A stretch of 64,000 nucleotides of DNA from positions 1 to 64,000 of the forward strand of contig CANAJP010000002.1 of NCBI GenBank assembly GCA_947361615.1. Reading direction: 5' to 3'. The notes under the pieces are model-generated. The model was not told the DNA's origin. It saw nothing but the letters and a program-made list of their open reading frames with translations, and did not search any database. Position 1 is the first letter of the stretch. Every line of letters begins with the position of its first letter. Positions 42,074 to 58,447 of the stretch are shown piece by piece. A program made the translations under genes and the position numbers. Source of the stretch: an uncultured Candidatus Melainabacteria bacterium. Its GTDB lineage: Bacteria > Cyanobacteriota > Vampirovibrionia > Gastranaerophilales > Gastranaerophilaceae.

Positions 42074-43233
42074 ATGAAAAACTTAAAAGCTGAAAACCCT
42101 TGTAGTGTAGCCTTTTCCACTGAGGGGGGGGGGGGCAAGACTTAGTTAGTGAAAAGTCGTTAGTTAAGAGTCAAGAGTTCAATATGGGGAATAAACCCGT
42201 GCGTAGCGCGCATAACGAACTCCTTACTCATTACTCTTCACTCCTCACTAACTCTGCGTTTACGATGGCTGAAATATTATTATCCCTCACCATCATCGGC
42301 GTGGTTGCGGCAATTACATTACCAAGTTTAACCGGAAACATTAACGAGCGCATGTGGAACACGCAGCGCAAAGCACTTTATGCTAGATTTTCACAGGCTA
42401 TTTCTTTAATGCCTGCTCTTAACGGATATGGAACTTTAACTCAGGACGCTAGCGGAAGTGTTACGACAGATACAGCAACGGAAACTTTTATCACCGCAGG
42501 ACTGGCCAAAGTTTTAAAAATTAACAACATTTGTGATAACGATCACCTGCCTGAGTGCGGAATTGTATCTTCCATCATAAATATGGGTGTGACTAAAATC
42601 ACAACGCCTAAAAATCTTTACGAATTAAATAACCACTTCCAAAGTGCTTCGGTGTATGGGTTAGCAAATTTTTCGGCTATTAATACCAAAGCTGCCGCGT
42701 TTGAAACACAAAATGGGGAAAGTATCATTGCCTACTATAACCCCTCTTGTAGGACTCAATATTTGAGCAACGAACAAATGAGTTCAACTATGAATACTTT
42801 TGGGTACCCGCAAACTACTATGTGTGCGAATTTTATCTATGACTTAAACGGGCTTAAAGGGCCGAACACTGTTGGAAAAGATATTGGTTTTATAACTGTA
42901 TTCAATGCCATTGATTCAATCGTAGTCGCTCCAATGCCGTCTGCTAATACAAATGCAACATTCGAAGGTTCTAATAATATGATTTGGAATAACGCAGCAA
43001 AAGCATGTACGCTTCAGGATTCAGAAAGCAGAATTCCAAATATTGAAGAAGCATCTGCTATGTTAATTAATAAAAATTTAATCAATTTAAGCAGCGCACC
43101 AGCAAATTATTATTGGACAAGCACAATTCTTGCAACTAACCCTAGACAAGCCTGGCAAATTGTTCCCAACAAAGGGATTCGAACAACTGAGTACAAAACA
43201 CAGCTACGCTTTGTTAGATGTATAAAACGTTAG
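42074..43233 (+). CDS. Phase-variable type IV prepilin A (frame OFF with 12 G)
   Basis: An ATG at 42074 with AAGGATTTTATAAGGT upstream encodes MKNLKAENPCSVAFSTEGGG, entering a run of 12 G (42124-42135). In this frame a stop follows at 42143. The prepilin frame is open from the G run to 43233, so 13 G (or 10) would fuse start and pilin. The fused leader would be about 62 residues, ending LLTNSA before FTMAEILLSLTIIGVVAAI, with Glu at +5. The mature part (about 325 aa) has paired cysteines and the family blocks FIYDLNGLKGPNTVGKDIGF and VAPMPS. Without slippage the pilin could only start internally at 42184, which lacks a clear Shine-Dalgarno. Predicted surface or pilus protein. Confidence 0.85.
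42124..42135 (+). repeat. Poly-G tract (12 G) of prepilin A
   Basis: Twelve consecutive G in an AT-rich context, 50 nt after the start codon. Upstream and downstream frames differ by one base, and 13 G restores a single frame. Confidence 0.9.
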
Positions 43234-43865
43234 CACGCAAGCAACGGCTTTTGCATTCCGACACTTGATTTTACATCAATAACTCTTTGCCCTTTAAAGG
43301 TGAAGAGTTGTTTGATGTTATCAGGATTTTTAGTGTTTTCCATTGCCAGAATCGCACCTACAATCGCTTCCAACTGCGACATTGGCATCATATTTACAGG
43401 CAAATCTATTCCCCATTCGTTCGTCAACACCTGTTGTAAAAACTTACAATCTGCAGGTGTTCTTTCGCGAAAACATGAATTCAAATGTAAGCTCTGGCGG
43501 GTTAAATAAAGTTCAAAACGGCTCACGTCAATCCCCTGTTCCAGCAAACTATTAAAGAAATCACAACCGCGAGTTGAATATCGTTGTGTCCAGTTATCAA
43601 TATTTCTTATATGCGGGTTTGTCGCAACAAGCTGATACGGCTTTGACAAAATCCTCCACTTTCCGTTCAATAGCGTTCTATCCCATGGGAGTGAAACACA
43701 AATTTTTGACTGCTTTAATGAAGAAAAATTCTCAAAAAAGAAAATTACATCACTCATTTTATACAGTTTGTCGACCATAATAAGGTTATAATCTTCGTCT
43801 AAAACAGCAAGTCCTGTATCCATTGTTGACCCTGCCGTCAGCGATAAACCTACGTAATAATTCAT
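43230..43865 (-). CDS. Predicted RNase H-fold protein (DUF429-like)
   Basis: This 211-residue protein begins YYVGLSLTAGSTMDTGLAVLDED, a strand-turn-strand pattern with an early Asp-containing loop seen in RNase H-like proteins, including predicted nucleases of the DUF429 group. Later blocks (VSLPWDRTLL, CDFFNSLLEQGI, AIVGAILAMENTK) fit that group loosely. No activity can be claimed. It overlaps the end of prepilin A convergently by 4 nt and follows map on the same strand, separated by a GC-rich hairpin. Confidence 0.6.
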   Translation of the reverse strand: MNYYVGLSLTAGSTMDTGLAVLDEDYNLIMVDKLYKMSDVIFFFENFSSLKQSKICVSLPWDRTLLNGKWRILSKPYQLVATNPHIRNIDNWTQRYSTRGCDFFNSLLEQGIDVSRFELYLTRQSLHLNSCFRERTPADCKFLQQVLTNEWGIDLPVNMMPMSQLEAIVGAILAMENTKNPDNIKQLFTFKGQRVIDVKSSVGMQKPLLAC

Positions 43866-43887
43866 AAAGCTCCTTTATAAGTCAGGA

Positions 43888-43909
43888 GGCGCGGCGCTCG
43901 CGCCGCGCC
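43888..43909. repeat. GC-rich perfect hairpin between map and the DUF429-like gene
   Basis: GGCGCGGCG (43888-43896) and CGCCGCGCC (43901-43909) form a 9-bp all-GC stem. No T tract follows on either strand. It may attenuate transcription out of map or be a remnant of a GC-rich dispersed element. Confidence 0.6.
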
Positions 43910-43912
43910 ATA

Positions 43913-44668
43913 CTATACCATTAATCGTGTAGTAATAAGCGGCTCATTGTCAGTCACAATAACCGTATGTTCAAAGTGCGCAGCAGGCATTTTTTCAACA
44001 GAACTTACAGTCCACTCATCATCCGCAACAACAACTTCATCAACTCCGCCCATAATAAACATCGGCTCAATTGCAATCGCCATGCCGGATTTAAGCTGTG
44101 TTTTGTCACCGACTGAATAGTTAAACAAAAACGGTTCTTCATGCATTGCGCGTCCTACACCGTGACCGCCGTATTGACGAACGATTCCGAGTTTTTCACG
44201 GTTTGCGACAGCCTCAATCGCCGCTGAAACATCATCTAAAACATTACCTTCGTGCATTTTTGCGATACCCGCCCAGAGGCCCTCTTCCGTATATTTCAAA
44301 AGACTTGCGACTTCATCACTAATTTTACCGACACCGTAAGTCCAAGCGCTATCGCCCACAAAACCGCCGTATGTGGCGCCAACATCAATACTGATTACAT
44401 CGCCCTCTTTGAGAATAATATTTTCATCAGGAATTCCGTGGACAACCTGTTCATTAACAGATGTACAAATGCATGCCGGAAAACCGTTATAACCCAAGAA
44501 TGTCGGAATGGCGCGATTTTCTTTAATAATTTTCATCGCAATATTATCCAATTCCTTTGTAGAAATTCCGGGTTCCACAACGCGTTTCATTTCTTGATGC
44601 ACCAGCGCAACAATGTGACCTGCGTGGCGCATACGTTTTATATCATCTCTTGATTTTCTGTTTATCAT
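43913..44668 (-). CDS. map: Methionine aminopeptidase, type I
   Basis: This 251-residue enzyme removes the initiator methionine. Metal ligands are all present: DVGATYGGFVGDSA (two Asp), YGGHGVGRAMHEEPF (His), AIAIEPMF (Glu) and EHTVIVTDNEPLI (Glu). GGAG lies upstream of the ATG. It follows recR by 24 nt in a minus-strand run ybaB-recR-map. Confidence 0.95.
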   Translation of the reverse strand: MINRKSRDDIKRMRHAGHIVALVHQEMKRVVEPGISTKELDNIAMKIIKENRAIPTFLGYNGFPACICTSVNEQVVHGIPDENIILKEGDVISIDVGATYGGFVGDSAWTYGVGKISDEVASLLKYTEEGLWAGIAKMHEGNVLDDVSAAIEAVANREKLGIVRQYGGHGVGRAMHEEPFLFNYSVGDKTQLKSGMAIAIEPMFIMGGVDEVVVADDEWTVSSVEKMPAAHFEHTVIVTDNEPLITTRLMV

Positions 44669-44692
44669 TTTTCAACTCCATGCCCTGCAGCA

Positions 44693-45289
44693 TTAAATTT
44701 CTCTCCTACCCTCTATTGCTCTTGCAAGAGTAATTTCATCCGCATATTCAAGGTCAGAACCTATCGGCAGACCGAACGCAATACGCGAAACCTTTATATT
44801 AAAAGGTTTTATAAGTTTCGTCAAATAAAGGCTTGTTGCTTCGCCCTCAACCGACGGGCTTAGCGCAAGAATAACCTCTTTTACCTCTTCGTTAACAAGT
44901 CGGTTCAAAAGTTCTTTTATTCTAATATCATCAGCCCCTATACTATCCATTGGCGAAATCAAACCCTGTAACACATGGTATAAGCCTTTATATTCATTGG
45001 TTTTTTCAATTGCGATCAAGTCTTTTGTTTCTGCAACAACACAAATCGTTGAGCGGTCGCGGCTTGTTGAGGCGCAAATCTCACACGGTGTTGAGGTCGA
45101 AATATTAAAACAGATTTCGCAGTTTTTAATATTATTTTTCGCCTCTAACATCGCCTGAGAAAACTTTTCCACCTCAGTAATCGGCATTCTAAGAAGATAG
45201 AACGCCATACGCTGCGCGGATTTCGGCCCGATTGACGGAAACTTTTGAAAATACTCTATTAATGTCGCAATAGATTTAGGATAAATCAT
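44693..45289 (-). CDS. recR: Recombination mediator RecR
   Basis: This 198-residue protein acts with RecF/RecO in gap repair. It has an N-terminal helix-hairpin-helix (FQKFPSIGPKSAQRMAFYLL), a C4 zinc motif CEICFNISTSTPCEIC, a Toprim domain (STICVVAETKDLIAIEKT) and a C-terminal Walker-B-like strand. It starts within the last codon region of ybaB (1-nt overlap), a common recR arrangement. Confidence 0.95.
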   Translation of the reverse strand: MIYPKSIATLIEYFQKFPSIGPKSAQRMAFYLLRMPITEVEKFSQAMLEAKNNIKNCEICFNISTSTPCEICASTSRDRSTICVVAETKDLIAIEKTNEYKGLYHVLQGLISPMDSIGADDIRIKELLNRLVNEEVKEVILALSPSVEGEATSLYLTKLIKPFNIKVSRIAFGLPIGSDLEYADEITLARAIEGRREI

Positions 45290-45627
45290 TATTGAAATAA
45301 TCCTTGCAATCCTGGAATATTCAAACCACCGGTAACTGCAGTCATTCTAGATTCCATTTCTTTATTAGCTTTATCGCCTGCCTGTTTGATTGCTGCAGAT
45401 ACAACATCTTCAAGCATTTCGATAGTGTCTTTGTCAACAGATGACGGATTTTCAGGATTTATAGCTTCTGCTGCAATAGAGATTGATTTGAATTTACCTT
45501 GACCGTCGCAAACGACTTTAACGCCGCCTTTTTCACCGACAACTTCAAGGTTAGCAAGTTCTACCTGTGTATCTTTTAATCTTTTTTGCAAGCCTTGTGC
45601 TTGTTTCATCATTTGCATAATATTCAT
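45289..45627 (-). CDS. YbaB/EbfC nucleoid-associated protein
   Basis: This 112-residue small DNA-binding protein begins MNIMQMMKQAQGLQKRLKDT with a Gly-rich C-terminus, as in YbaB. It usually sits directly before recR, as here. Shine-Dalgarno AGGAGG. Confidence 0.92.
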   Translation of the reverse strand: MNIMQMMKQAQGLQKRLKDTQVELANLEVVGEKGGVKVVCDGQGKFKSISIAAEAINPENPSSVDKDTIEMLEDVVSAAIKQAGDKANKEMESRMTAVTGGLNIPGLQGLFQ

Positions 45628-45689
45628 TTATACATATCCTCCTAATTAAATGTCTTCCCTAATATTTAATCTTATTATATAATAAAAAT

Positions 45690-46487
45690 ATGGAAAATGG
45701 AAGAACATATCTCTTAGAATCTTTAAAAAACGGGCGTTTAATGCGCTGGACATTTATGCCGCTAAAAGTTTATATTGCGCCGATGAATTTTTACTCTAAA
45801 CAGGGGGAAGATTACAAATACCGTGCGATGGTAAAACAGGCACTGGAAGCATGGCAAAAAGTTTCAAACGGAAAAATTTCGTTTAAGATTGTCAGCACGC
45901 TTCTGGAATCTAACGTTAATATTGAATGGAAACGCGTAGATAGACAAGCCTTGGGGTATTGTACATTTCAATATGACCCGAACAACAGACTTTATAGCGC
46001 AGAAGTTCAAATCGGACTGACCGAGGGACTGGTTCACGCCCAATATATGGATGAAGACGAGGTTTACCACACAATCCTGCACGAAATCGGCCACGCACTG
46101 GGTTTAGGCCATAGCCCTTATAAAACAGATATTATGTATACTCCGCACCAGAAAGGCATTAAAAATCTTTCAACAAATGATAAGCTTACACTCAAATGGC
46201 TTTATAATTTTCCACAAGGTGCAACACCCGCTGAAATTGCGAACAAATACGGCACAAGCGGTTCAAATATTGATGAAATCACATCAAAAATTATTAACAA
46301 ACAAAACAAATCAGGCTTTGAAGAGGTAAAAAAATCCATAAAACCTCAAACGGGACGTGACCTTGTTGAAGAACAAGAACGAATTGCCCTAATGCGCAAA
46401 CATCACATGGCCCTTCAAAATGTAACTATTTCACAGGATATAAAAAATTATTTAATAAATCACAAAAATCAGCCAAGACAATTTTGA
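45690..46487 (+). CDS. Matrixin-like zinc metalloprotease
   Basis: This 265-residue protein has the metzincin motif ILHEIGHALGLGHSPYKTDIMY, with zinc ligands in HExxHxxGxxH and the Met-turn Met, around residues 130-152. No signal peptide or membrane anchor: the first 60 residues (MRWTFMPLKVYIAPMNFYSK) are part of the fold. This is unusual since matrixins are normally secreted. The C-terminal 90 residues are basic and helical. TATAAT ends 6 nt before the ATG without a Shine-Dalgarno, so it is probably leaderless. Confidence 0.85.
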   Translation: MENGRTYLLESLKNGRLMRWTFMPLKVYIAPMNFYSKQGEDYKYRAMVKQALEAWQKVSNGKISFKIVSTLLESNVNIEWKRVDRQALGYCTFQYDPNNRLYSAEVQIGLTEGLVHAQYMDEDEVYHTILHEIGHALGLGHSPYKTDIMYTPHQKGIKNLSTNDKLTLKWLYNFPQGATPAEIANKYGTSGSNIDEITSKIINKQNKSGFEEVKKSIKPQTGRDLVEEQERIALMRKHHMALQNVTISQDIKNYLINHKNQPRQF

Positions 46488-46490
46488 AGA

Positions 46491-46515
46491 ATAGGCGGCA
46501 CTGGGTGCCGCCTAT
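46491..46515. terminator. Bidirectional hairpin between protease and prepilin B
   Basis: ATAGGCGGCA (46491-46500) pairs with TGCCGCCTAT (46506-46515), loop CTGGG. It serves convergent genes. Confidence 0.7.
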
Positions 46516-46519
46516 TAAC

Positions 46520-47721
46520 TTATCGTTTAACACACCAGACAGGATAGTTTGTACCAACACCCCAATCGTCAATCTCTCCAGTGCCCATATTTGCTGCAAT
46601 ACCAACAAGGTTGCCGTCCCTCGGCCTTGTTTGAACGGTTGACGACCAATAAGTGGTATTTGTAAATCCTACCGGTTGCAACAATTGTTTATTTACGAAC
46701 ATTGCATAAGTTTCTTCCAGATTAGGCAAACGGTATTCCGCATCCATGTTCGTACAAGCTTTTCCCGCGTTTCTTTGTGCTGATGCAGGTAATGTTTTCG
46801 CTGCCGCTTGCGGCGCAATAACTACCGGATCACTTGGATATAAAACTGTCATAACTCCAATATCTTTACCCACAGTATTAGGGCCTTTGTTACCGTTTAA
46901 ATCAAAAACAAAATTTGCACAAACCGTTCGTTGATAAAGAGAACCAGCCGCCTGGCCTGATGAATTAACACCCCAATTGATATCATTCAAGGAGCCCATA
47001 CAATACGGATTTACATAAGCTATAATACTTTCTCCATTTTTCGTTTCAAATGCAGCAGCTTTTGTATCCTTGACATAGAAAGACTGAACACCATTATTGA
47101 GAGAGCCAACCATTTTAGGGTTTAATTCTTTCATAGTTGTCGGTACGCTTTGGGTAGAGCCAGCCATTGTCGTGATTTTACTTGAAATTCCGCAATCATT
47201 TAAATGAGTATTATCGCAAACATTATTAACTTGAAGAACTTTACCTAATACATTTGTCACAAAAGTTTCGGCTGCGGTATCAACACCATCACCGGCACCT
47301 GAAGAACTTTCTTCTGTTACAGTTGCATAACCGTTCAACGCCGGCATTAGGGCAATTGCCTGTGAAAATCGCGCATAAAGAGCTTTTCTCTGAGTGTTCC
47401 ATGTACGTTCGTTAATGTTACCGGTTAGCGATGGCAACGTTATCGCTGCGACCACGCCGATAATTGTTAATGATAGCAGGATTTCGGCCATGGTGAAAGC
47501 TACTCGTTGTACAGTAGCCCGCAAACCCATTATGGAACCCGCTTGACCGCGGGTGTCATGCTGAACTCGTTTCAGCATCTGGCCAGCGTGGAATTCTACC
47601 AGTGACGTTTGACAGATCCCGAAACAAGTTCGGGATGACAAGTGGGAGTAGAACGCCCCACTATTTCTACCAAAGAGGCTCCCCCCCCCCCTGTCAAAGT
47701 GTTTACAATTTTGTTTTTCAT
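46520..47721 (-). CDS. Phase-variable type IV prepilin B (frame OFF with 11 G)
   Basis: The ATG at 47721 (AAGGAAGG upstream) encodes MKNKIVNTLTGGGG, entering 11 G (coding strand). In this frame a stop is met in the leader. With 12 G the frame reads through GGGGSLFGRNSGAF and the dispersed repeat (SSRTCFGICQT...MLKRVQHD) to ATVQRVA before FTMAEILLSLTIIGVVAAI, a leader of about 75 residues. The mature protein has Glu at +5, a CDNTHLNDCGI Cys pair, FVFDLNGNKGPNTVGKDIGV and a CVKR end. As written, the pilin frame opens only at the non-AUG codon at 47641, with no Shine-Dalgarno. Confidence 0.85.
47554..47640. repeat. Paired inverted dispersed repeat inside the prepilin B leader
   Basis: An 87-bp copy starting TGTCATGCTGAACTCGTTTC and ending GAAACAAGTTCGGGATGACA. 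On the minus strand it is translated without stop in the pilin frame. The same element in the same frame interrupts the prepilin D leader. Confidence 0.85.
47681..47691 (-). repeat. Poly-G tract (11 G, coding strand) of prepilin B
   Basis: Eleven C on the plus strand. The start codon lies 30 nt upstream on the coding strand. Twelve G would restore one frame from ATG to pilin. Confidence 0.9.
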
Positions 47722-47746
47722 TAGTTTTTCCTTCCTTTCTGTTTGC

Positions 47747-47775
47747 ATTATGTATTATTTTTCACAACATGTCAA
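47747..47775 (-). promoter_or_regulatory. Promoter of prepilin B
   Basis: On the minus strand: TTGACA (47775-47770), 17-bp spacer, CATAAT (47752-47747), then AAAGGAAGG and ATG. Virtually the same as the promoters of C and D. Confidence 0.78.
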
Positions 47776-47854
47776 GACGCTGCTTTTGTAACAATTTCTT
47801 TACCTACTGGCAAAAAAAATTTTTACACTTGTTTAGGCTAAAGGGATTACTAAA

Positions 47855-49516: not shown

Positions 49517-49522
49517 AACAAA

Positions 49523-49542
49523 AAGGGCGCCTAAACGCCCTT
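49523..49542 (+). terminator. Hairpin after the nucleotidase gene
   Basis: AAGGGCG (49523-49529) pairs with CGCCCTT (49536-49542). The flank is A-rich upstream and only moderately T-rich downstream. Confidence 0.6.
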
Positions 49543-49579
49543 CCAATTCCCTTGTTATATATGTGTGTTACTAGATAAA

Positions 49580-50116
49580 TCACTTGTTTGTTTTATACTT
49601 ATAACTCAAAATACTATAGCTTCCGGTGCTGGATGATGAATCATCGCCGTAAAAAGTTGACATATTAGACGCAAATTTATGGTTCATCTCATCTTCTTTT
49701 TCCATCTTAGCAGCTTTAAGTTTATATGCCGCGATTTCAGCATCTGTAATTCTTCCGTCCCCGTTAGAATCCATTGCCTCAAAGTTTTCCAGAATATAAG
49801 AATAATCAGCGTTTGAAATTCCAGCAGCCCCTGACGCCTGCAATTGTGTTAACTGCGCTTTAGTCAAACCGCTTGCAGACATCTGGCTGATTGTATTATT
49901 CGCCTCTGACGCTGAAATCACCCCGTCACCATCCGCGTCAAGTGCTGAAAAATTTGTTTGCAAATATGACGCAAAAGTTTGGTTTAAATTCATCAAATTA
50001 TCTGTATTTGTCCGTGCTTCTGCGATATTTTCAAGCGTAAGCCCGTCTTTATATTGTGAAGCCAAATATGCATAAGTGCTGTTCAACCCCGCATAAATTC
50101 CTGATAATGAAGTCAT
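49580..50116 (-). CDS. EF-hand calcium-binding protein
   Basis: This 178-residue protein has two canonical EF-hand loops, DADGDGVISASEA and DSNGDGRITDAEI, each flanked by helices (about residues 60-75 and 115-130). The N-terminus (MTSLSGIYAGLNSTYAYLAS) has no cleavable signal. The C-terminus is Ser/Tyr-rich. Likely a calcium sensor or buffer; no partner is evident. Shine-Dalgarno TTAGGAGG. Confidence 0.85.
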   Translation of the reverse strand: MTSLSGIYAGLNSTYAYLASQYKDGLTLENIAEARTNTDNLMNLNQTFASYLQTNFSALDADGDGVISASEANNTISQMSASGLTKAQLTQLQASGAAGISNADYSYILENFEAMDSNGDGRITDAEIAAYKLKAAKMEKEDEMNHKFASNMSTFYGDDSSSSTGSYSILSYKYKTNK

Positions 50117-50250: not shown

Positions 50251-50493
50251 ATGGCAGAAGCAAAAATTTTAGCGACTATACCTAGAACTGATACAGAACA
50301 ATTACAGATTTCAATAAGCGAATACAGAGGCAAAAGCTATTTCAATTTACGTATTCACTACACAACTGACGGCGGTGCAACCTGGTTACCGACAAAAAAA
50401 GGCGTAACTTTCGCACCTGAACAACTTGATTTGTTATCAGAAGCGATTGAAGAAGCGAAGAAAGAATTCATGGCTGAGGGCGAGGGCGAATAA
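50251..50493 (+). CDS. PC4/p15-like nucleic-acid-binding protein
   Basis: This 80-residue protein has the PC4 pattern: hydrophobic strands LQISISEYRGKSYFNLRIHY, then TTDGGATWLPTKKGVTFAPE and a C-terminal helix LDLLSEAIEEAKKEF. PC4-like proteins bind single-stranded DNA or act in transcription. AAGGAGAG lies before the ATG, with TATACT further upstream. A hairpin (GGGCGAATAATTCGCCC) overlaps the stop codon. The gene is 56 nt upstream of priA. Confidence 0.8.
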   Translation: MAEAKILATIPRTDTEQLQISISEYRGKSYFNLRIHYTTDGGATWLPTKKGVTFAPEQLDLLSEAIEEAKKEFMAEGEGE

Positions 50494-50548
50494 TTCGCCC
50501 CCTCTTATTTGGCTTACTGGCAAGACTTTATAGCTTGGGGAATAGACA

Positions 50549-52756
50549 TTGTCAAAATACGCTTTAGCATTAGTAAATATCAAGGGATTGGGGGTAAAGA
50601 CATACAGTTACCTTATTCCTGATGAAATGCAGGGCAAAATCCAAATCGGTCAGGTTATTCTTGTACCTTTTGGAAGACAAGGACTCGTAAATGCTTTTTG
50701 TGTGGGGTTTTCCGACTACTTACCACCCGAAATCAGGGCTAAAAAGGTGAGTAAAATTCTGGAGGGAAATCCCCTTTTTAATATTGATTATTTGAAGCTT
50801 CTTGAATGGGTTGCGAATTACTATTGCACGGATTTAATTACGGTTATAAATGCTGCAATTCCTTTAAAATTAATCGAGAAAGCCTCAAAAACCGAACAGT
50901 ATTTAGAATTTGTACACTTTGATGGAGCAACAAAACGTCAGGTTGAAGTGCTTGAAAAACTTCAAACACGTGGCAAATGCAATCTTATTGTGTTTGAAAA
51001 AGAGGCAAAAACAACCCGCGCAACAATCAAAAAGCTTGAAGAACTCGGCTGTCTGCGCCTGAGTAACGAGGAGCTTTACCGCAACCCGCTTGATGTTCTG
51101 CGCATAACTGAGCGCGAAGAACTTTTTGAACTTTCCCCGGAACAAAATACCGTTTATGAGGGCATAAAAAAGAAAATAGCTCAAACGCCGACAGATACGA
51201 TTCTTTTGCACGGTGTTACTGCAAGCGGAAAGACAGAAGTTTATTTCAAACTCATTGATGATTGTATAAAATCAGGCAAAAATGTTCTTTTTCTTGCGCC
51301 TGAAATTGCACTTGCCTCACAGCTTACCAAACGTCTTGCGCGAAAATTCGGGACCGAAGATGTTGCCATCTGGCACAGTAGTATTTCAGACGGCGAACGG
51401 TACGACGTCTGGCAAAAACTTTACCGTGACGAAATAAAAATACTCGCAGGCGCACGATCTGCGGTTTTTGCCCCGCTAAAAAACATCGGCCTGATTATTA
51501 TTGACGAAGAACACGAAGGCGCATACAAACAAACCAGCCCTGCTCCGCGTTATGACGCAAAAGTGGTTGCGCAAAAATTACAGGAGTTTCACAACTGCCC
51601 GATGATTTTAGGCTCTGCAACTCCTGATATTTCAAGTTATTATCGCGCAATAAACAGCAAAAACCTTTTTGAAATGCTTAAACGCTACAATAACGCCAAA
51701 GTTCCGCCTGTGTCGGTTATAAACATGCAAAATCACGGCAAAGCCGCATATAAAAACCTTATTTCCAAACCCTTGCAGACTGCAATCACCGAAACCCTTG
51801 AAAAGGGTCAACAGATAATTCTGCTTATCAATCGCCGCGGATTTTCGACATACTCACAATGTCAGGCCTGCGGCCATGTAATAGAATGTCCGCATTGTGC
51901 AATTCCGATGATTTGGCACGCAAAAGACCAGCGCTTAAAATGCCACTACTGCAATCATACTGAATACTTCCCTGATTTTTGCCCGTCCTGCGGCTCAGAC
52001 TCATTCAAAAACAGCGGGGTCGGAACACAAAAAATAGAGCAGTACATAAAAGAACTTTACCCTGAAAACAATGTTGAGCGTATCGACAGCGACATTCTAA
52101 CCCGCAAAGGCGAACATGTTCGCTTGCTAGAAAAATTCCAACGGGGTGAAATTGATATTCTTGTCGGCACACAAATGATTGCCAAAGGCCTCGACAACCC
52201 GAACGTAACCCTTGTCGGCGTAATCTCAGCGGACGCAAGTTTTAACCTGCCGGATTTTAGGGCATCAGAGCGCGGATTTCAACTTCTAACGCAGGTGGCA
52301 GGACGCGCAGGACGCGGAGAATTCTCGGGAAGCGTAATTTTCCAAACATACAACCCCGACTACTACGCTCTTGCAAGCGCAAAATCACAAAACTACAAAG
52401 AATTTTATGATACCGAAATTGTAGCACGTGAAGAATTCGACTACCCGCCATTCAGCCAGATTATCCGTATAATTCTTAGTAGTGAAAACAACTTCCGCGC
52501 CGAAAAATCAGCGCAGGAAATTGTTTTACGACTTGCCACTATGATTGAAAAATTCGGGGTTTCCGAACGTCTTGAGGTGCTGGGGCCAACACCTTGTGTA
52601 ATTGAACGCATCAACGGACTTTATCGCTTCCAAATAATCATCAAAAACAAACTTGGTGAAAAAGGTCACAGTTTTATTTCTAGTTTCATAGGAAAGATAA
52701 CGATGCCACGCGACATCCGTATGGCCGTTGACGTAGATCCTCTGGATATCCTTTAA
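50549..52756 (+). CDS. priA: Primosomal helicase PriA
   Basis: This 735-residue replication-restart helicase has an N-terminal 3'-DNA-binding domain (1-105), Walker A LLHGVTASGKTEVYF, DEEH box IIIDEEHEGAYKQ, GSATPD, and the two zinc-binding clusters (CQACGHVIECPHC and CHYCNHTEYFPDFCPSC). Helicase motif VI (VAGRAGRG) follows. The start is a TTG at 50549 with GGGGA upstream, fitting the conserved MSKYALALVNI start. It overlaps the convergent prepilin C end by 4 nt. Confidence 0.95.
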   Translation: MSKYALALVNIKGLGVKTYSYLIPDEMQGKIQIGQVILVPFGRQGLVNAFCVGFSDYLPPEIRAKKVSKILEGNPLFNIDYLKLLEWVANYYCTDLITVINAAIPLKLIEKASKTEQYLEFVHFDGATKRQVEVLEKLQTRGKCNLIVFEKEAKTTRATIKKLEELGCLRLSNEELYRNPLDVLRITEREELFELSPEQNTVYEGIKKKIAQTPTDTILLHGVTASGKTEVYFKLIDDCIKSGKNVLFLAPEIALASQLTKRLARKFGTEDVAIWHSSISDGERYDVWQKLYRDEIKILAGARSAVFAPLKNIGLIIIDEEHEGAYKQTSPAPRYDAKVVAQKLQEFHNCPMILGSATPDISSYYRAINSKNLFEMLKRYNNAKVPPVSVINMQNHGKAAYKNLISKPLQTAITETLEKGQQIILLINRRGFSTYSQCQACGHVIECPHCAIPMIWHAKDQRLKCHYCNHTEYFPDFCPSCGSDSFKNSGVGTQKIEQYIKELYPENNVERIDSDILTRKGEHVRLLEKFQRGEIDILVGTQMIAKGLDNPNVTLVGVISADASFNLPDFRASERGFQLLTQVAGRAGRGEFSGSVIFQTYNPDYYALASAKSQNYKEFYDTEIVAREEFDYPPFSQIIRIILSSENNFRAEKSAQEIVLRLATMIEKFGVSERLEVLGPTPCVIERINGLYRFQIIIKNKLGEKGHSFISSFIGKITMPRDIRMAVDVDPLDIL

Positions 52757-53902
52757 TCCATCCGACGAATACAGTATAAACTCATACCACGCAATTCTGC
52801 TTTAGTTGTACAGTTACGATAGCCTATAGCTGTACTTACCCGCCAGGCCTTTCCACTATCGCATGAACTTGTTGTCCAAAGTATTTCTGGAAGCGAAGAG
52901 CCTAAGAATTTTTTATTTACAAATACAGCCGCACCCTCGTCATAATTAGGTGCTCTGCCTTCACCATAACGTTCCTTGCATAATCTATTAGCTGCACTAA
53001 AATCACCACCTTGTCCAGAAAGCGAACCGTATGGTGAAACAGCTACTACATTTGAGTCTGACGGATACATTACGGTAATAAACCCGATATCTTTACCAAC
53101 CGTGTTCGGGCCTTTAGAACCATTCAAATCATAAACAAAATTAACACACATAGATTTTTGTGCATAATTAAGTTTTTCACCGTTTGAACGTTGTTCATCT
53201 ATATCCGCAGTACAAGCAGGGTTATAATATGCAATAATACTCTCACCGCTGATCGTTTCAAAGGCTCCCGCATCAACATCAGCAACAGTCACCGAATGTG
53301 TATACGTACCACCGGCAGAATTAGTAAATACTTTATAATAGCTAAATGCAGAGTTTAAATTATATAGAGTATCAGGAACAGAAGCAAGCTGCGAACCGTT
53401 AAAATCAGTAATTTTAGACGGAATTCCACAATCAGCTAAATGCTTGTTATCACAAATATTATTAATTTTTAAAACTTTTGACAAACCATCGGTCAAAAAG
53501 GTCTGTGTTGCTATAGATTTTGTTTCTGACGTAGTTGCCCCTTGCCCATAACCATTCAATGCAGGCATTAAAGCTATTGCCTGTGACATACGTGCATAAA
53601 GTGCTTTTCGCTGCGTATTCCATGTGCGCTCGTTTATGTTTCCTGTCAATGACGGCAAAGTTATCGCCGCAACTACACCGATAATTGTGAGAGATAATAA
53701 TATTTCCGCCATAGTAAAGGCCAAGCCGAGCGGAGCCACGGAGCGAAGCGGAGAGACGAGCGCGCGACGCGGCAAACCGCGCTTTGGCACGCAAGCGCGA
53801 GCGGTGGCGTTCAACGCGAGGCGCAGTTCTAACGCCCCACTAAATATACCTAAGAGAGGCCCCCCCCCCCCCTGTCCATGTTAAGACATTAAGTTTTTTC
53901 AT
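52753..53902 (-). CDS. Phase-variable type IV prepilin C (frame OFF with 13 G)
   Basis: The ATG at 53902 (AAAGGAAG upstream) encodes MKKLNVLTWTGGGG, entering 13 G; this frame stops seven codons after the tract. With 12 G (or 15) it continues GGGGPLLGIFSGALELRL, through a very GC-rich insertion (RALVSPLRSVAPLGLA), to FTMAEILLSLTIIGVVAAI: a leader of about 61 residues. The GC-rich leader (about 53722-53835) contrasts with the AT-rich gene. The mature part has Glu at +5, CDNKHLADCGI, FVYDLNGSKGPNTVGKDIGF and a C-terminal CIRRMD. Confidence 0.85.
53860..53872 (-). repeat. Poly-G tract (13 G, coding strand) of prepilin C
   Basis: Thirteen C on the plus strand, 30 nt after the start codon on the coding strand. 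Twelve G restores one frame. Confidence 0.9.
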
Positions 53903-53928
53903 AAGTTTCTTCCTTTCTGTATAAAATT

Positions 53929-53957
53929 ATTATGCAGCATGTTTTAAGATATGTCAA
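53929..53957 (-). promoter_or_regulatory. Promoter of prepilin C
   Basis: On the minus strand: TTGACA (53957-53952), 17-bp spacer, CATAAT (53934-53929), then AGAAAGGAAG and ATG. Confidence 0.78.
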
Positions 53958-53974
53958 CCTTGTATGACACAGCC

Positions 53975-54589
53975 TTAGCGTGCATTCGCCGGTGCGCTCA
54001 AATATAACGGCGTAAGTTTTCCCCAGTCGCCATCCTCATTTTCAGCTTTTTTAACCGCAATTTGCGCGATAATTTCACCCAAATTCAGATTCAACGCCTG
54101 ATATGAAACTCCACCCAAAAACGGTTGCAATTTATCATCAGTCACAACAAAATATCCGTCAGTCACAATTTCACCCAACGGCAAAATTCCTTTAATTTCA
54201 CCATCAATCGCGACATAAGCACTTTCGCGACGTGCGTCAAGCGCGATTAATTTCTTTTTGCCCTCAAAATCGACCGGTAAATTTTCTAAAACCTCAAAAG
54301 ATGTAACGCCAATAAGTTTTTTGCCCAATTCCTGCGCCATAACCCGAGCAACAGTCATACAGGTTCTAATTGCCGTAAACCCGCCGGGGCCTACGCTTGT
54401 TGCAATCAAATCCAAATCCGCAAATGTTAAACCGTTTGAAATCAAGGCATATTTAATAGTTTGGTGCAACAATGGTGATCGAGTTTGCATTTCCTCGTAA
54501 GAAACAGCAACGGCACTAAGTGAAACACCGTCACGAACCAAAGTTACATACATTTTATCCATACAAGTATCAAACGCTAAAACTAACAT
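53975..54589 (-). CDS. tsaB: tRNA t6A modification protein TsaB
   Basis: This 204-residue ASKHA-fold partner of TsaD in threonylcarbamoyl-adenosine synthesis begins MLVLAFDTCMDKMYVTLVRD, with LIATSVGPGGFTAIRTCMTV as the family's conserved block. It overlaps tsaE by 7 nt, the usual coupling. The short C-terminus is typical of some TsaB. Confidence 0.92.
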   Translation of the reverse strand: MLVLAFDTCMDKMYVTLVRDGVSLSAVAVSYEEMQTRSPLLHQTIKYALISNGLTFADLDLIATSVGPGGFTAIRTCMTVARVMAQELGKKLIGVTSFEVLENLPVDFEGKKKLIALDARRESAYVAIDGEIKGILPLGEIVTDGYFVVTDDKLQPFLGGVSYQALNLNLGEIIAQIAVKKAENEDGDWGKLTPLYLSAPANAR

Positions 54590-55050
54590 GTTTCCAGCCC
54601 CTCAATAATATATTCAAACCCTTTTCCGCTCGGCTCAAAAGTATAAACACGCGCGTCATCATCGTTATAAGTTACGTTGATTTTCAAATGATTAAACGGG
54701 ATTTCGTTTTGCGAAAACTCTGCCCATTCAACAAACGTAATGTTTTTCCCCTCTGAATACTCACGAAGCTCATCAGCTATAGTTTTAACCCCCTCGTGTT
54801 CAAGACGATACAAATCAAAATGATAAATCGGAAGTCTAGCGCTGTGGTATTCATTAAGAATTACAAAACTCGGGCTTGTAACTTTTTCCTGAACCCCAAG
54901 AGCATCGGCAACAAGTTTTACAAAAGCGGTTTTCCCCGCACCAATTTCACCGTAAAGGTTCACAAAACAGCCACTTTCAATAAGGCTTGCAAAATCTTGC
55001 GCAAGTTTTTTCGTATCATCCAAACTATTACAAACTCTTGAATACTTCAT
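54583..55050 (-). CDS. tsaE: tRNA t6A modification ATPase TsaE
   Basis: This 155-residue P-loop ATPase has Walker A GEIGAGKTAFVK, the TSPSFVILNEY segment, the HFDLYRLE motif and FVEWAE. It drives turnover of the TsaBDE complex. Shine-Dalgarno AGAGG. It lies 2 nt after the diguanylate cyclase stop, so yebC, the cyclase, tsaE and tsaB may be one transcript. Confidence 0.94.
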   Translation of the reverse strand: MKYSRVCNSLDDTKKLAQDFASLIESGCFVNLYGEIGAGKTAFVKLVADALGVQEKVTSPSFVILNEYHSARLPIYHFDLYRLEHEGVKTIADELREYSEGKNITFVEWAEFSQNEIPFNHLKINVTYNDDDARVYTFEPSGKGFEYIIEGLETC

Positions 55051-55051
55051 T

Positions 55052-56416
55052 TTACACCTCTAATGCGGACACAACCCTGTTACGTCCGCCAGTTTTTGCC
55101 TCATACAGCGCTTTATCTGCCTTGATAATTAGGTCAGAAATCTCATCACCCTCTTGCATTTGATAAACCCCAAGACTTATTGTGACATTAATATTTTTGT
55201 GTTCAGGCGTAAGTTTTGAGATATCAATCAAACGCTTTTCAACAGCTTTTCTAAGACGTTCGGCAACCATACAAGCGTCTTTTATCGCTGCACTCGGGAG
55301 CAATATTGTAAACTCTTCACCGCCGTAACGACCCGCCACGTCGTATTCACGAAGCTGTGAGCGAATAACATCCGACACATTTTTCAAAACCAAATCGCCA
55401 ACCGCGTGGCCATAAGTATCATTCACGCTTTTGAAGAAGTCAATATCCGTCATAATAACCGACAACGGCAACTTTTGACGACGGGAACTTGAAACTTCTT
55501 GTTTTAAACGTTCTTCAAGCTGACGTTTATTATAAAAACCGGTCAAAGCGTCAAGCGTTGCGTGTTTAAGGATTTCCGCGTAAACATTTGCACGGTTGAT
55601 GGTTGTCGCAACTTGATTTGTAAGCTGTTCGATATAATCAACTTCTTTGTCGTTGAGTTTACCCTCCATGCTTTTTGTAACTATACAGCCAAAAAGCTTA
55701 CCCTCGCTCACAAGCGGAAAAACCCCGGTTTTCTTGTCTGCCGTCAGAATACAATCCGAGTCACTTCGCAAAATACTTATAAGTCCGTAGATTTTTTCAT
55801 CGTTGCACGCCCCGGGCCAAACAAGCGAAAAATCTTCATTATCTTCTTTTTTCAAGAAAATATAAATAAGATGATTTGACACAAATTTATCAAACATTTC
55901 ACCAATCAGCGGTACGATATAATTCAATTCGTACTGAGTTTCGATGATTTTTGCTATATTCTTCATCGAATCGTGAAAATTAATATTTTTCTGCATTTTT
56001 TCGTTCAGAATAATATTTTGAACTTTTAACGAAATAACATCCGCAGCGATTTCAAGAAATTTCAAGAGTTCTACCTCGTCGCCGCTATGAGTAAACTCAA
56101 GCATTCCCACAAACTTTGCCTGTTTCTTGAGCGGGAAATAAAGTTTTCCGCCAAAAAATTTGTGCTGACACCCAGCCTCAAATTCCTCGTGAATTTTATA
56201 ATACTCGCCGACAACCTTTTTTTCAAAAATATCATCGATGTAGAGCCAATTTCTTGAAAAATCTCTTAGTTGCGCTGTTGTACTATCCCACGTATAAAGT
56301 TCAGTTTTTTGCACCTCAAAATAGTCCGCAAAAAAGTCGTGCAAAGAGTTCAAAATACTTTTTGCACTGTACGAACTATTCAAAAGCTTAGATAATTCGG
56401 CAATCTTCTGAAGCAT
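55052..56416 (-). CDS. Diguanylate cyclase with GAF-like sensor
   Basis: This 454-residue protein makes cyclic di-GMP. The N-terminal 270 residues contain two GAF-like regions (LYFPLKKQAKFVGMLEF; GVFPLVSEGKLFGCIV), and the C-terminal GGDEF domain has the active site RYGGEEFTILLPSA. An inhibitory site, REYD, lies five residues before GGEEF. Cytosolic. It overlaps the yebC stop by one base. Cyclic di-GMP controls type IV pili in many bacteria, so a link with the pilin genes around it is conceivable. Confidence 0.92.
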   Translation of the reverse strand: MLQKIAELSKLLNSSYSAKSILNSLHDFFADYFEVQKTELYTWDSTTAQLRDFSRNWLYIDDIFEKKVVGEYYKIHEEFEAGCQHKFFGGKLYFPLKKQAKFVGMLEFTHSGDEVELLKFLEIAADVISLKVQNIILNEKMQKNINFHDSMKNIAKIIETQYELNYIVPLIGEMFDKFVSNHLIYIFLKKEDNEDFSLVWPGACNDEKIYGLISILRSDSDCILTADKKTGVFPLVSEGKLFGCIVTKSMEGKLNDKEVDYIEQLTNQVATTINRANVYAEILKHATLDALTGFYNKRQLEERLKQEVSSSRRQKLPLSVIMTDIDFFKSVNDTYGHAVGDLVLKNVSDVIRSQLREYDVAGRYGGEEFTILLPSAAIKDACMVAERLRKAVEKRLIDISKLTPEHKNINVTISLGVYQMQEGDEISDLIIKADKALYEAKTGGRNRVVSALEV

Positions 56417-57168
56417 TATACGTCCAATTTTTCCATAATTTCGTCCGGAATGTCAAAATTCATATAGACATTTTGAACATCATCGTGTTCTTCAAGTCTA
56501 TCTAATAAACGCATAACCTGTTGCGCTGTTTTTTCATCAGTCACAGCAACAGTGTTTTGCGGAATTCTTGTAAATTCGGCAGTTTGAGGCTTAAACCCTG
56601 CGCCCTCAAGCCCTTCAACAACTTTTTGGAAATTTTCAACAGATGTTAAAACTGTATAAGTATCGTCCTCATCAACGATATCTTCCGCGTCGAAATTGAT
56701 AGCAGTTTCAAAAAGCGTATCAAAATCAATACCCTCTTTGTTGAAAATCAATTGACCGCGTTGGTCAAACATCCAACTGACTGCACCAGTTGTGCCAAGG
56801 TTTCCGTTGAATTTTGTGAAATAACTTCTAATATCGCCTGCAGTTCTATTTCTGTTATCAGTCATTGTTTCAACGACAACAGCGACACCGCCTGCCGCGT
56901 AACCCTCGTAAACCAATTCTTCATAGTTTTCACTTGAGCCAGCGCCTGCACCTTTTTCGATTGCACGTTTAATATTATCGTTCGGAAGCCCTGCAGCTTT
57001 AGCTTTTTCAATTGCTGTTCTTAAACGGAAGTTACCAGCAGGATCTGCGCCGCCCAAGCGCGCCGCAACGATTAATTCTCTTGAATATCTTTGAAACACA
57101 ACCGCACGTTGTGAATCAACTTTTGCTTTCTTATGTTTAATTGTAGACCACTTGGAATGTCCTGACAT
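56416..57168 (-). CDS. yebC: YebC/PmpR-family regulator
   Basis: This 250-residue TACO1/YebC-family protein begins MSGHSKWSTIKHKKAKVDSQ and contains ARLGGADPAGNFRLRTAIEK. The family binds DNA or helps ribosomes through proline stretches. I start at 57168, which has AGAGGAAA before it; the upstream extension from 57216 lacks support. Confidence 0.94.
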   Translation of the reverse strand: MSGHSKWSTIKHKKAKVDSQRAVVFQRYSRELIVAARLGGADPAGNFRLRTAIEKAKAAGLPNDNIKRAIEKGAGAGSSENYEELVYEGYAAGGVAVVVETMTDNRNRTAGDIRSYFTKFNGNLGTTGAVSWMFDQRGQLIFNKEGIDFDTLFETAINFDAEDIVDEDDTYTVLTSVENFQKVVEGLEGAGFKPQTAEFTRIPQNTVAVTDEKTAQQVMRLLDRLEEHDDVQNVYMNFDIPDEIMEKLDV

Positions 57169-57224
57169 AAAATTTTCCTCTCTATTTTCACCTGATATGC
57201 TTAAATAATATCGCAAACAAAGAA

Positions 57225-57258
57225 GAAAAACAAGGCGCCAGCCTTTCGGCTGGCGCCC
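57225..57258 (-). terminator. Terminator of prepilin D
   Basis: On the minus strand GGCGCCAGCC and GGCTGGCGCC (57257-57248 and 57243-57234) form a 10-bp stem followed by TTGTTTTTC. Confidence 0.8.
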
Positions 57259-57267
57259 TTCTATAAA

Positions 57268-58447
57268 TCACCGTTTCACACAATACGCATCCAATCTATC
57301 CGCAGGAGTGGAACCACCAAATCCTTGGACCAAAACAGCGGTACCGGCATTTGTAAACAACCCTTTGACTTTACCACCTTCAACAGCCGTAGATGACCAC
57401 AAATGCTGCCCCGTCTTAATATCATATAATTTGTGGTTAACAAATAACGAAACCAATTCCTCAAAATTGGGCAGACGATATTCCTCATCCATTTTTCTAC
57501 AAGCAGATACTCCCTCTTGGAAATAAACGTGGTGCAAAGCTTCTTTATTATTAATAACCGGCGCAACTACAACGCTATCGCTTGAATATAATGCCGTCAT
57601 GACACCAATATCTTTGCCCACAGTATTTGGCCCTTTTGAACCATTCAAATCATAAAGAAAATTCACACAAACTTTCGACTGTACTTTATAAGAAGTTCTT
57701 TCATTCATGTTGGATGTACATTTCGGGTTATAATATACTACAAGACTTTCGCCGTTAGCCGTTTCAAAGGCCGCTACCTTTGTATTTTTAAACATTGAAT
57801 AAGAAAGCATTTCGCCGTTCAAATCTGCGAAAGTAGCAGGAAAAGAAGCTACTTTATTTCCATTTACTGTATTAAAACCTTTGCTAGTAATACCACAATC
57901 ATATAAATGTTCGCTGGCACAAATATTATTTATCTTTAACACTTTGGACAGTCCGGCCACAACAAAAGTTTCTGCGGCAGTATCTTCTGCATCGCTTGCA
58001 CCTGCTGAACTTTCTTCTTTTAGGGTTCCATAACCATTTAATGCAGGCATTAACGCTATCGCCTGCGAAAATCTCGCATAAAGCGCTTTACGCTGAGTAT
58101 TCCAGGTTCGCTCGTTAATGTTACCTGTTAATGACGGCAACGTTATCGCAGCAACTACACCGATTATCGTTAGGGATAAAAGAATTTCAGCCATAGTAAA
58201 TGCAATACAGGTCACCCTTTTTCTGTCATGCTGAACTCGTTTCAGCATCTGTCCAGCGCTACATTCTACCGGTGTCGTTTGACAGATCCCGAAACAAGTT
58301 CGGGATGACAAATGTAGTAAACACATTATCCTTATTAACTTATTAACATGCCAACTTATTAACTCGGCGTTCTCTTCTATTAGGCGTGGGCCGTTAAGAA
58401 AACTCCCCCCCCCCCCCTGATAAAATGTTTACATTTCTCTTGTTCAT
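57268..58447 (-). CDS. Phase-variable type IV prepilin D (frame OFF with 13 G)
   Basis: The ATG at 58447 (AAAGGATTATT upstream) encodes MNKRNVNILSGGGG, entering 13 G, and stops three codons after the tract. With 12 G it reads GGGGSFLNGPRLIEENAELI and on through the dispersed repeat (SSRTCFGICQT...MLKRVQHD) to VTCIA before FTMAEILLSLTIIGVVAAI, a leader of about 82 residues. The mature part has CASEHLYDCGI, FLYDLNGSKGPNTVGKDIGV and a CVKR end. An internal ATG at 58326 exists but has no Shine-Dalgarno. Confidence 0.85.
58224..58310. repeat. Paired inverted dispersed repeat inside the prepilin D leader
   Basis: An 87-bp element starting TGTCATGCTGAACTCGTTTC and ending GAAACAAGTTCGGGATGACA, nearly the same as the copy in prepilin B and read in the same frame. 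Confidence 0.85.
58405..58417 (-). repeat. Poly-G tract (13 G, coding strand) of prepilin D
   Basis: Thirteen C on the plus strand, 30 nt after the start codon on the coding strand. Twelve G restores one frame. Confidence 0.9.

What the first reader, a model, noticed from the sequence alone, without database searches (positions are those of the whole stretch)
42074..58447. Four prepilin genes switched by poly-G tracts in their leader, all caught OFF by one base
All four genes (A 42074-43233 +; B 46520-47721, C 52753-53902, D 57268-58447 -) share promoter, Shine-Dalgarno, ATG, 10-17 codons, a G run (12, 11, 13, 13) and an open frame into FTMAEILL. For B, C and D, 12 G joins the frames; for A, 13 G does. 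Each is off by exactly one, and each ON product contains GGGG. The downstream frame is stop-free from tract to pilin in all four, across 80-150 nt, which is unlikely without selection. Poly-G contingency loci are established in Campylobacter, Neisseria and others. A scattered phase-variable pilin repertoire in this lineage would, to my knowledge, be new.
Basis: partly seen in the sequence, partly recalled or inferred. Interest (0 to 1): 0.93.

Follow-up and report, generated by a model that had tools for sequence, protein, structure and literature searches.

The report
Poly-G switches on dozens of pilins
A bacterium from a non-photosynthetic branch of the cyanobacteria, likely a gut dweller, carries dozens of related predicted pilus-subunit genes with a run of 9 to 14 Gs in their start region, and in its assembled genome most are one base out of frame, so the runs likely act as random on/off switches that would let each cell show a different set of surface fibres.

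Summary
The four window genes are as described: tracts of 12, 11, 13 and 13 G, each one base from joining the upstream ATG to a predicted type IV prepilin. They belong to a genome-wide system. The window's genome (1.83 Mb; same genus as Ca. Gastranaerophilus, Melainabacteria) has 108 matches to this pilin. I examined 131 tract-bearing pilin loci in six genomes of the genus. The stretch from tract to pilin is stop-free in the pilin frame in 127 of 131, against 28 and 35 in the other frames. Of 116 intact loci 75 have one G too many, 26 are in frame, 15 are off the other way. Public proteins show one pilin, identical in its mature part, with leaders that imply 12 G and 13 G. Genes OFF in assemblies still evolve at dN/dS 0.04-0.19. 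Most likely mechanism: slipped-strand phase variation inside the prepilin leader of a very large pilin family whose modelled C-terminus has a C-type-lectin fold. No reads or expression data were available. The open-licence papers searched hold no report of phase variation in this lineage. New variant of a known kind.

The parts
42074..42123 (+). Gene A: start codon and leader before the tract (MKNLKAENPCSVAFST..), 50 nt; SD AAAGGA at about 42057-42062
42124..42135 (+). Gene A: poly-G tract, 12 G (13 would be in frame)
42136..42258 (+). Gene A: 123-nt spacer, open in the pilin frame up to the predicted cleavage site (A|FTMAEILL)
42259..43233 (+). Gene A: predicted mature pilin with stop; Lcl_C match below the Pfam cut-off at the C-terminus
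47692..47721 (-). Gene B: start codon and 30-nt leader MKNKIVNTLT
47681..47691 (-). Gene B: poly-G tract, 11 G (12 would be in frame); collinear counterpart in L247 has 12 G and is in frame
47498..47680 (-). Gene B: 183-nt spacer (15 nt in the collinear counterpart; difference 168 = 3 x 56), holds recurring repeat sequence, open in the pilin frame
46520..47497 (-). Gene B: predicted mature pilin with stop; AlphaFold model, C-terminal C-type-lectin fold (residues 209-325)
53873..53902 (-). Gene C: start codon and 30-nt leader MKKLNVLTWT
53860..53872 (-). Gene C: poly-G tract, 13 G (12 would be in frame); collinear counterpart in L247 has 12 G and is in frame
53719..53859 (-). Gene C: 141-nt spacer (15 nt in the counterpart; difference 126 = 3 x 42), open in the pilin frame
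52753..53718 (-). Gene C: predicted mature pilin with stop
58418..58447 (-). Gene D: start codon and 30-nt leader MNKRNVNILS
58405..58417 (-). Gene D: poly-G tract, 13 G (12 would be in frame)
58201..58404 (-). Gene D: 204-nt spacer, holds recurring repeat sequence, open in the pilin frame
57268..58200 (-). Gene D: predicted mature pilin with stop
24044..24991 (-). Distant pilin paralogue (38% identity to B) without tract, leader in frame (KKKA|FTLVEVV): an always-in-frame relative in the same window

Best explanation
The G runs lie in the start region of dozens of related, predicted type IV pilin genes and set whether the start codon and the pilin are in one frame, so length changes of one G likely switch each gene on or off at random. 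Shown: tract between start codon and pilin, frame dependence, intact in-frame and out-of-frame copies, and the same mature pilin with leaders that imply 12 and 13 G. Inferred: the changes arise by slipped-strand mispairing during replication; an in-frame copy makes a prepilin with a Gly-Gly-Gly-Gly leader that prepilin peptidase removes before the F of FTMAEILL; because the leader is thrown away, repeat insertions between tract and cleavage site are tolerated as long as they keep the frame. With most copies held one base out of frame, each cell would display a small, changing subset of a large set of pilins that end in a C-type-lectin-like domain. Ligand, target (host glycans, other microbes, phage) and switching rate are unknown.
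For: Scale: 108 matches to pilin B in the own genome, 96 of them (B included) over 231 or more of 322 residues; 88 distinct FTMAEIL N-termini in the fetched loci, 52 with a tract of 9 G or more within 520 nt. Of the other 36, 31 lie less than 520 nt from the end of the sequence held, mostly contig ends. On the two largest contigs 12 of 13 internal tracts sit before pilins. Frame: spacer open in the pilin frame at 127 of 131 loci in six genomes, 28 and 35 in the other frames; for spacers of 60 nt or more 70 of 74 against 4 and 1. Residue before the F is A or G at 116 of 116. Control: of 28 rows without a tract in 520 nt (27 distinct places; one counted twice), 23 have SD and ATG in the pilin frame, 3 have N gaps, 1 has a tract further up, 1 has no such start; in contrast 26 of 116 tract loci are in frame. 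Counterparts: L247 is collinear with window 43723-55756 and holds B and C in frame with 12 G. Alleles: ten public proteins share one spacer; four bear the canonical leader (12 G), six start MQGGGG (13 G), and four ON/OFF pairs (three distinct mature sequences) are 100% identical in the mature part; L162 has 14 G before nearly the same spacer. Constraint: dN/dS 0.04-0.19 in nine of ten syntenic pairs tested (the tenth saturated), including pairs OFF in both assemblies; first 30 codons nearly identical in protein but 46% identical at third positions. Tract length follows the frame: 75 of 116 are one G above in-frame, 52.9 expected when lengths are shuffled within genomes, 0 of 5000 shuffles reach it (4 of 5000 when shuffled within genome and leader class).
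Against: No reads, expression or protein data. Tract lengths are assembly consensus, and the 12 G versus 13 G alleles were seen as database proteins, not DNA. PilD (PF01478) was not found in the own MAG, though it is in 6 of 6 other genomes of the genus, so a gap is likely. One congener has 15 of 33 copies in frame, not fewer than chance, so 'mostly OFF' is not universal. Why the OFF state in this genus is mostly one G too many (75 against 15), yet one G too few in another genus (G042, 12 of 15), is not explained. 25 of the 75 'one G too many' loci do have an ATG, GTG or TTG upstream of the tract in the pilin frame. 5 of 52 own tract loci are broken by a stop in spacer or leader. Not every tract is before a pilin: 0 of 11 in G095. 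One congener (G006) has no tract at all. Switching rate is unmeasured.
Confidence: 0.87

Rival explanations
1. Translation starts inside the spacer (ATG, GTG or TTG downstream of the tract), so all copies are expressed and the tract is irrelevant to output.
For: In-frame starts exist in the window (42184, 47641, 53814, 58326), and gene callers use such starts in public proteins (P0112).
Against: Then the stretch between tract and internal start need not stay open, yet it is open in 127 of 131 loci. Many spacers are only 10-30 nt long and leave little room for an SD and start. An ATG with an SD-type motif 24-52 nt before the tract is present at all 50 own tract loci with 60 nt upstream (the search asked for that motif).
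Confidence: 0.04
2. Programmed slippage: RNA polymerase or the ribosome slips on the G run, so the 'one G too many' state gives a low, steady level of every pilin.
For: The OFF state is biased to one phase (75 against 15 of 116) and tract length compensates for leader and spacer changes to keep it.
Against: In-frame copies are common (26 of 116; 15 of 33 in one genome), another genus prefers the opposite phase, and the same pilin exists with leaders implying 12 and 13 G. A fixed programmed site would not be expected to vary.
Confidence: 0.08
3. Silent cassette store: out-of-frame copies serve mainly as donors for recombination into expressed pilins, as pilS does for pilE.
For: In 8 of 20 flank-matched pairs the pilin at the same site is not the best match among the fetched pilins of the other genome (ranks 2 to 44; the one at 44 is a truncated protein), so bodies turn over faster than their sites.
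Against: In 12 of 20 pairs it is the best match. Own tract loci have start signals of their own, unlike pilS; in-frame copies occur at many sites. Third-position identity is low in the shared N-terminus, which speaks against frequent DNA-level homogenisation.
Confidence: 0.06
4. Artefact: tract lengths are miscounted (two-colour Illumina chemistry, assembly), and the genes are really in frame and constant.
For: Some contig ends carry long interrupted G runs (C1:96933-96986, C2:82278-82309), as artefacts do; MOYE scaffolds have N beside tracts (7 of 13 rows dropped).
Against: Tracts recur at the same place in records of different titles, mostly with unique flanks on both sides. Lengths follow the reading frame, which a sequencing bias cannot know. 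Another genus has the opposite bias.
Confidence: 0.04

Closest known systems
Poly-G contingency loci of Campylobacter jejuni and Neisseria (pilC, pglA, lgtA)
   Same: Run of 9 or more G in a surface-related gene; frame set by tract length; lengths differ between isolates. Seen: passages of PMC5953494 (pilC G 9-20; 15-19 poly-G tracts per genome on average; maxima 54 and 47 loci, 36-82 in N. lactamica) and of PMC11868660 (23 such genes in C. jejuni NCTC11168).
   Different: There the loci are functionally diverse. Here one pilin family supplies dozens of loci in one genome, the tract sits in the predicted cleaved leader, and the host is an uncultured lineage next to cyanobacteria.
Neisseria pilE/pilS antigenic variation
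   Same: Large stock of variable pilins with a constant N-terminus (recalled). Some pilS copies carry repeat tracts (PMC5953494, passage).
   Different: One expressed locus fed by silent partial copies (recalled); here each copy has its own start signals and switch.
Opa proteins of Neisseria (multi-copy, each with its own repeat tract)
   Same: Closest in logic: several paralogues, each with its own repeat tract in the gene (PMC5953494, passage: CTTCT, 7-21 repeats; 4, 12 and 2 copies given for three species). That the tract lies in the signal-peptide region is recalled.
   Different: Pentamer repeats, about a dozen copies or fewer, outer-membrane proteins, not pilins.
Moraxella bovis pilin inversion
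   Same: Phase variation of pilin genes (listed in PMC11868660, passage).
   Different: DNA inversion, not a tract in a leader.
Legionella Lcl C-terminal domain (PDB 8q4e) and C-type-lectin folds
   Different: Lcl is not filed as a pilin; ligand binding here is untested.

Membership tests
Repeat-mediated phase-variable (contingency) locus | Mutable repeat of accepted length (G of 9 or more) in the reading frame | tested here: met
   Tracts of 9-16 G in 131 loci, four in the window; cut-off as in PMC5953494 (passage)
Repeat-mediated phase-variable (contingency) locus | Tract length decides whether the full protein is in frame | tested here: met
   26 in frame, 90 out of frame of 116 intact loci
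Repeat-mediated phase-variable (contingency) locus | Length differs between otherwise identical copies in nature | tested here: met
   Four pairs of public proteins with identical mature pilin, leaders implying 12 and 13 G; seen at protein level only
Repeat-mediated phase-variable (contingency) locus | Reversible switching at high rate with a change in expression | not testable with these tools
   No reads, no culture
Type IV pilin | Prepilin leader ending in G or A, then F, E at +5 and a hydrophobic helix | tested here: met
   A 78, G 38 of 116; F1 to A18 invariant in all 61 aligned; Pfam N_methyl matches are weak, below cut-off in A, B, D and not listed in C
Type IV pilin | Assembly machinery in the genome | tested here: inconclusive
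   PilB/PilT-type ATPase domain: 4 matches over the cut-off; Peptidase_A24 in 6 of 6 other genomes of the genus but not in this MAG
pilE/pilS system | Silent copies without start signals | tested here: not met
   ATG with an SD-type motif before the tract at all 50 own tract loci with 60 nt upstream; the start finder asked for that motif
Lcl_C / C-type lectin domain | C-type-lectin fold at the C-terminus | tested here: met
Lcl_C / C-type lectin domain | Score over the Pfam PF07603 cut-off | tested here: not met
   Gene A 26.3 bits against 34.9; B, C, D not listed; precomputed PF07603 on a number of relatives
Lcl_C / C-type lectin domain | Glycan binding | not testable with these tools
   -

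The most novel reading that the evidence does not exclude
A fibre lottery: a lineage of non-photosynthetic cyanobacterial kin holds about a hundred lectin-tipped pilins per genome, each parked one G away from its reading frame, and selection re-tunes the tract whenever leader or spacer shifts, so that at any time each cell shows a few random lectin pili out of a vast set. Multi-locus phase variation of this size would then exist in an ordinary gut commensal and as a trait of much of a family.
Probability: 0.55. Interest if true: 0.92.

Novelty: new variant of a known kind. Interest (0 to 1): 0.82.

Why it matters
[quoted passage not shown] Here an uncultured lineage not known as a pathogen (recalled) carries a repertoire of the order of the largest Neisseria phasomes (maxima 54 and 47 loci, 36-82 in N. 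lactamica, PMC5953494, abstract; another title speaks of 115 meningococcal genes, PMC5084427, listing only), and 12 of 13 internal tracts on its two largest contigs serve one pilin family. Runs of ten or more G occur in 116 of 146 genomes of the family sample, 41 of them with 20 or more (my count from the table), against 0-3 per genome in the 22 sampled genomes of other families of the order. The question can be tested at once with existing metagenome reads: tabulate tract lengths per locus, host and time. If the lectin-like tips bind gut glycans, this would be a way to change attachment, immune recognition or phage sensitivity without changing gene content. It also warns annotators: these genes get internal starts in databases, and assemblies often break beside them.

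Tried and rejected
Internal starts, programmed slippage, silent cassettes and artefact were weighed as rivals (see there). I asked whether the common OFF state is really ON from another upstream start: in the pilin frame 46 of 75 such loci have no ATG/GTG/TTG between the last stop and the tract, and in 4 more the frame does not reach past the tract; 25 have one (16 ATG, 9 GTG/TTG), so this is not a general answer. I asked whether the constant N-terminus is a DNA-level recombination tract: third positions are only 46% identical, so protein-level constraint is the better reading. Whether bodies at one site are swapped by recombination or by gain and loss stayed open. Pfam and NCBIfam gave only weak pilin matches. 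Tracts in G095, G110 and G020 were not next to pilins (0 of 11, 0 of 1, 0 of 1). Foldseek and VIA-align matches shown covered mostly the C-terminal domain; no pilin chain was among the rows shown, which says nothing against a pilin stalk; residues 13-26 of the model are below pLDDT 50. I did not test whether the spacer repeats occur outside pilin leaders. Two counts differ by motif: one search used a looser one (55 own loci, 51 open) than (52 own loci). The ten pairs were picked by me from the 57 flank-matched pairs, mostly ones whose pilins are each other's best match; several dS values are above 1.5 and so rough.

Rows dropped before the phase count: 15 of 131, namely 4 own loci with a stop in the spacer, 1 own locus with a stop in the leader, 7 MOYE rows with N beside the tract (one also without a start), 1 CALUQY row without a start, 2 JAMPIJ rows without start and with N.
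Full report
Observation. Each lies between an SD-preceded ATG and a type IV prepilin motif FTMAEILL, and each is one base away from joining the two frames: A 50+12+123 nt, B 30+11+183, C 30+13+141, D 30+13+204. Runs of 11 or more are expected 0.003 times per Mb and strand at this composition.

Scale. The window is contig C2 of a 1.83 Mb genome in 108 contigs, 95.6% complete. Pilin B matches 108 places in it; 96 of them, B itself included, cover 231 or more of the 322 query residues, at 48-69% identity apart from B. I fetched these loci, bar a few of the shortest matches. They hold 88 distinct FTMAEIL N-termini; 52 have a tract of nine or more G within 520 nt. Of the other 36, 5 have 520 nt or more upstream and no tract; 31 lie closer than that to the end of the held sequence, mostly contig ends, because assemblies break here. 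On the two largest contigs 12 of 13 internal tracts sit before pilins; the thirteenth lies in frame in a 465-aa gene. The genome has 127 runs of ten or more G counted by their 5' flank, 113 by their 3' flank, contig-end artefacts included.

Organism. The best relatives in named genomes are Ca. Gastranaerophilus phascolarctosicola Zag_221 (from its name, koala), other Gastranaerophilales or Melainabacteria MAGs, and a MAG filed as 'Fusobacterium sp.'. By matching coordinates they are five of the six other genomes of the window's genus. The source of the window's own sample is not known to me; that it is a gut bacterium is inferred from its kin. The sixth congener, G006, has no run of nine G and 13 pilin matches.

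Anatomy. Two leader classes occur: about 30 nt before the tract (MKNKIVNICA-like) and about 49 nt (MKNLKAENPCHMALLS-like). With a 15-nt spacer the natural in-frame product reads MKNKLMYILTGGGGSSLTA|FTMAEILL (L247), an ordinary prepilin leader with Gly4 in the middle. Longer spacers, up to 504 nt, hold recurring repeat sequence with a visible inverted repeat (CCCGAACTTGTTTCGGG in B and D), read in different frames and orientations as peptides such as CHPELVSGS, LSSRTCFGICQ and MLKQVQHD. They stay open: 127 of 131 loci in the pilin frame against 28 and 35 in the other frames; for spacers of 60 nt or more, 70 of 74 against 4 and 1. Among 90 intact loci of the short class 88 have a spacer divisible by three. 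This is expected if ribosomes run from the ATG through tract and spacer into the pilin, and the leader is later cut off and discarded. The residue before F is A or G in 116 of 116.

Phases. Of 131 tract loci in six genomes, 116 have a start, no N, and open leader and spacer (15 dropped). 75 have one G too many, 26 are in frame, 15 are off the other way. By genome, in order in frame / one too many / other: own 6/37/4, JAMPIJ 15/10/8, CALVBO 2/8/3, CALUQY 2/8/0, CAMUPF 0/7/0, MOYE 1/5/0. In-frame copies are rarer than one third in the own genome (6 of 47, binomial p 0.002) and over all (26 of 116, p 0.013), not in JAMPIJ (15 of 33, p 0.14); loci of one genome are not independent. Where leader or spacer length shifts the frame, tract length shifts with it: 75 loci in the one-too-many state against 52.9 when lengths are shuffled within genomes (0 of 5000 reach it) and 66.5 when shuffled within genome and leader class (4 of 5000); for the own genome alone the latter control gives 32 of 5000. 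So the reading frame, not only slippage mechanics, seems to shape tract length. In another genus (G042) 15 of 19 tracts lie before pilins of type FTLAEVL or alike, 12 one G short and 3 in frame. Being mostly OFF recurs; the side does not.

Internal control. Pilins of the same family without tract have short leaders such as MKKA|FTMAE or MKNLA|FTMAE. Of 28 rows with 520 nt upstream and no tract there (27 distinct places), 23 have SD and ATG in frame, 3 have N gaps, 1 has a tract further up, 1 has no such start. Out-of-frame pilins are thus a property of tract loci.

Same site, other state. L247 of the JAMPIJ genome is collinear with window 43723-55756 at 80-88% DNA identity. Their pilin bodies are 60% and 70% identical to B and C. 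The window's spacers are 168 and 126 nt longer, both multiples of three.

Same pilin, two lengths. In the protein search (2418 hits, best 120 listed) ten listed proteins share one spacer. Four start with the canonical leader MKNRRVSINAGGGG, six with MQGGGG, which is how a gene caller reads ATGCA followed by 13 G. Four pairs, one of each kind, are 100% identical over the 321-323 aligned mature residues; they stand for three mature sequences. L162 carries 14 G before nearly the same spacer. I did not see the DNA of the 12 G and 13 G copies. A second search with B found no closer relative than 70% besides itself among the 120 listed, so alleles of B were not seen.

Selection. In nine of ten syntenic pairs tested dN/dS is 0.04-0.19, also where both copies are out of frame in their assemblies; the tenth is saturated, several dS are large, and I chose the pairs. 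Across own-genome loci the first 30 codons are nearly identical in protein but 46% identical at third positions. Out-of-frame copies are thus not decaying pseudogenes as a rule; 5 of 52 own tract loci do carry a stop in spacer or leader.

Distribution. Runs of ten or more G: 116 of 146 genomes of the family sample, up to 127, 176 in one further genome of the family (G172); 30 of the 146 have none. In 22 genomes of other families of the order 0-3 each. In fetched stretches, tracts led to a pilin motif in 31 of 43 (G003; four of the 12 others are cut by a sequence end), 15 of 19 (G042), 4 of 8 (G139, two of these with a stop in the spacer), 0 of 11 (G095). Some genera therefore seem to use the tracts for other genes.

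Known or new. Phase variation by poly-G is well known (Campylobacter, Neisseria). In the open-licence papers searched, no paper holds both Gastranaerophilales (or Vampirovibrion-) and phase variation. Three hold Gastranaerophil- and pilin; one of them reports pilA, pilB, pilC, pilT and pilD in a termite species (PMC5877343, passages); the other two I saw only in the listing. Other searches were judged from their listings. Subscription papers and preprints outside that library were not searched. I file it as a new variant: known switch, new place (predicted cleaved prepilin leader), new scale in one family, new lineage.

Limits. No reads, no expression, no culture. The ON/OFF language describes reading frames in assemblies. 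Function of the display is unknown.

Noticed in passing
L266 2069-2082 (- strand; own genome C2:66069-66082): A 14-G tract in frame inside a 465-aa gene on the same contig (from its look a glycerophosphotransferase-like polysaccharide enzyme; no family search was run): possibly a second kind of switched surface gene.
   Followed up: partly
L262-L265 (genome G095): In this genome of another genus 0 of 11 fetched tracts are before a pilin motif; another set of genes seems to carry the G runs.
   Followed up: no
genome G006 (same genus): A congener with no run of nine or more G and only 13 pilin matches: a natural loss, or a genus member that never had the system.
   Followed up: no
JAMPIJ01 records (L156, L177 etc.): A MAG titled 'Fusobacterium sp. 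isolate NALB_7963_5' matches a genome of the window's genus (G003) and is collinear with the window; the label looks wrong.
   Followed up: partly
own genome C1:96933-96986, C2:82278-82309: Contig ends made of long interrupted G runs, probably sequencing or assembly artefacts.
   Followed up: no
window 47498-47680, 58201-58404 and spacers of many loci: Recurring repeats with an inverted repeat sit inside the predicted cleaved leader, in several orientations and reading frames but stop-free: a protein region that tolerates repeat insertion, like the palindromic elements inside Rickettsia genes (recalled).
   Followed up: partly
flank-matched pairs L231/L092, L246/L071, L242/L049: Same chromosomal site by flanks, different pilin body in two species (rank 37, 43, 32 of 52 fetched pilins): cassette turnover at fixed sites.
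   Followed up: partly
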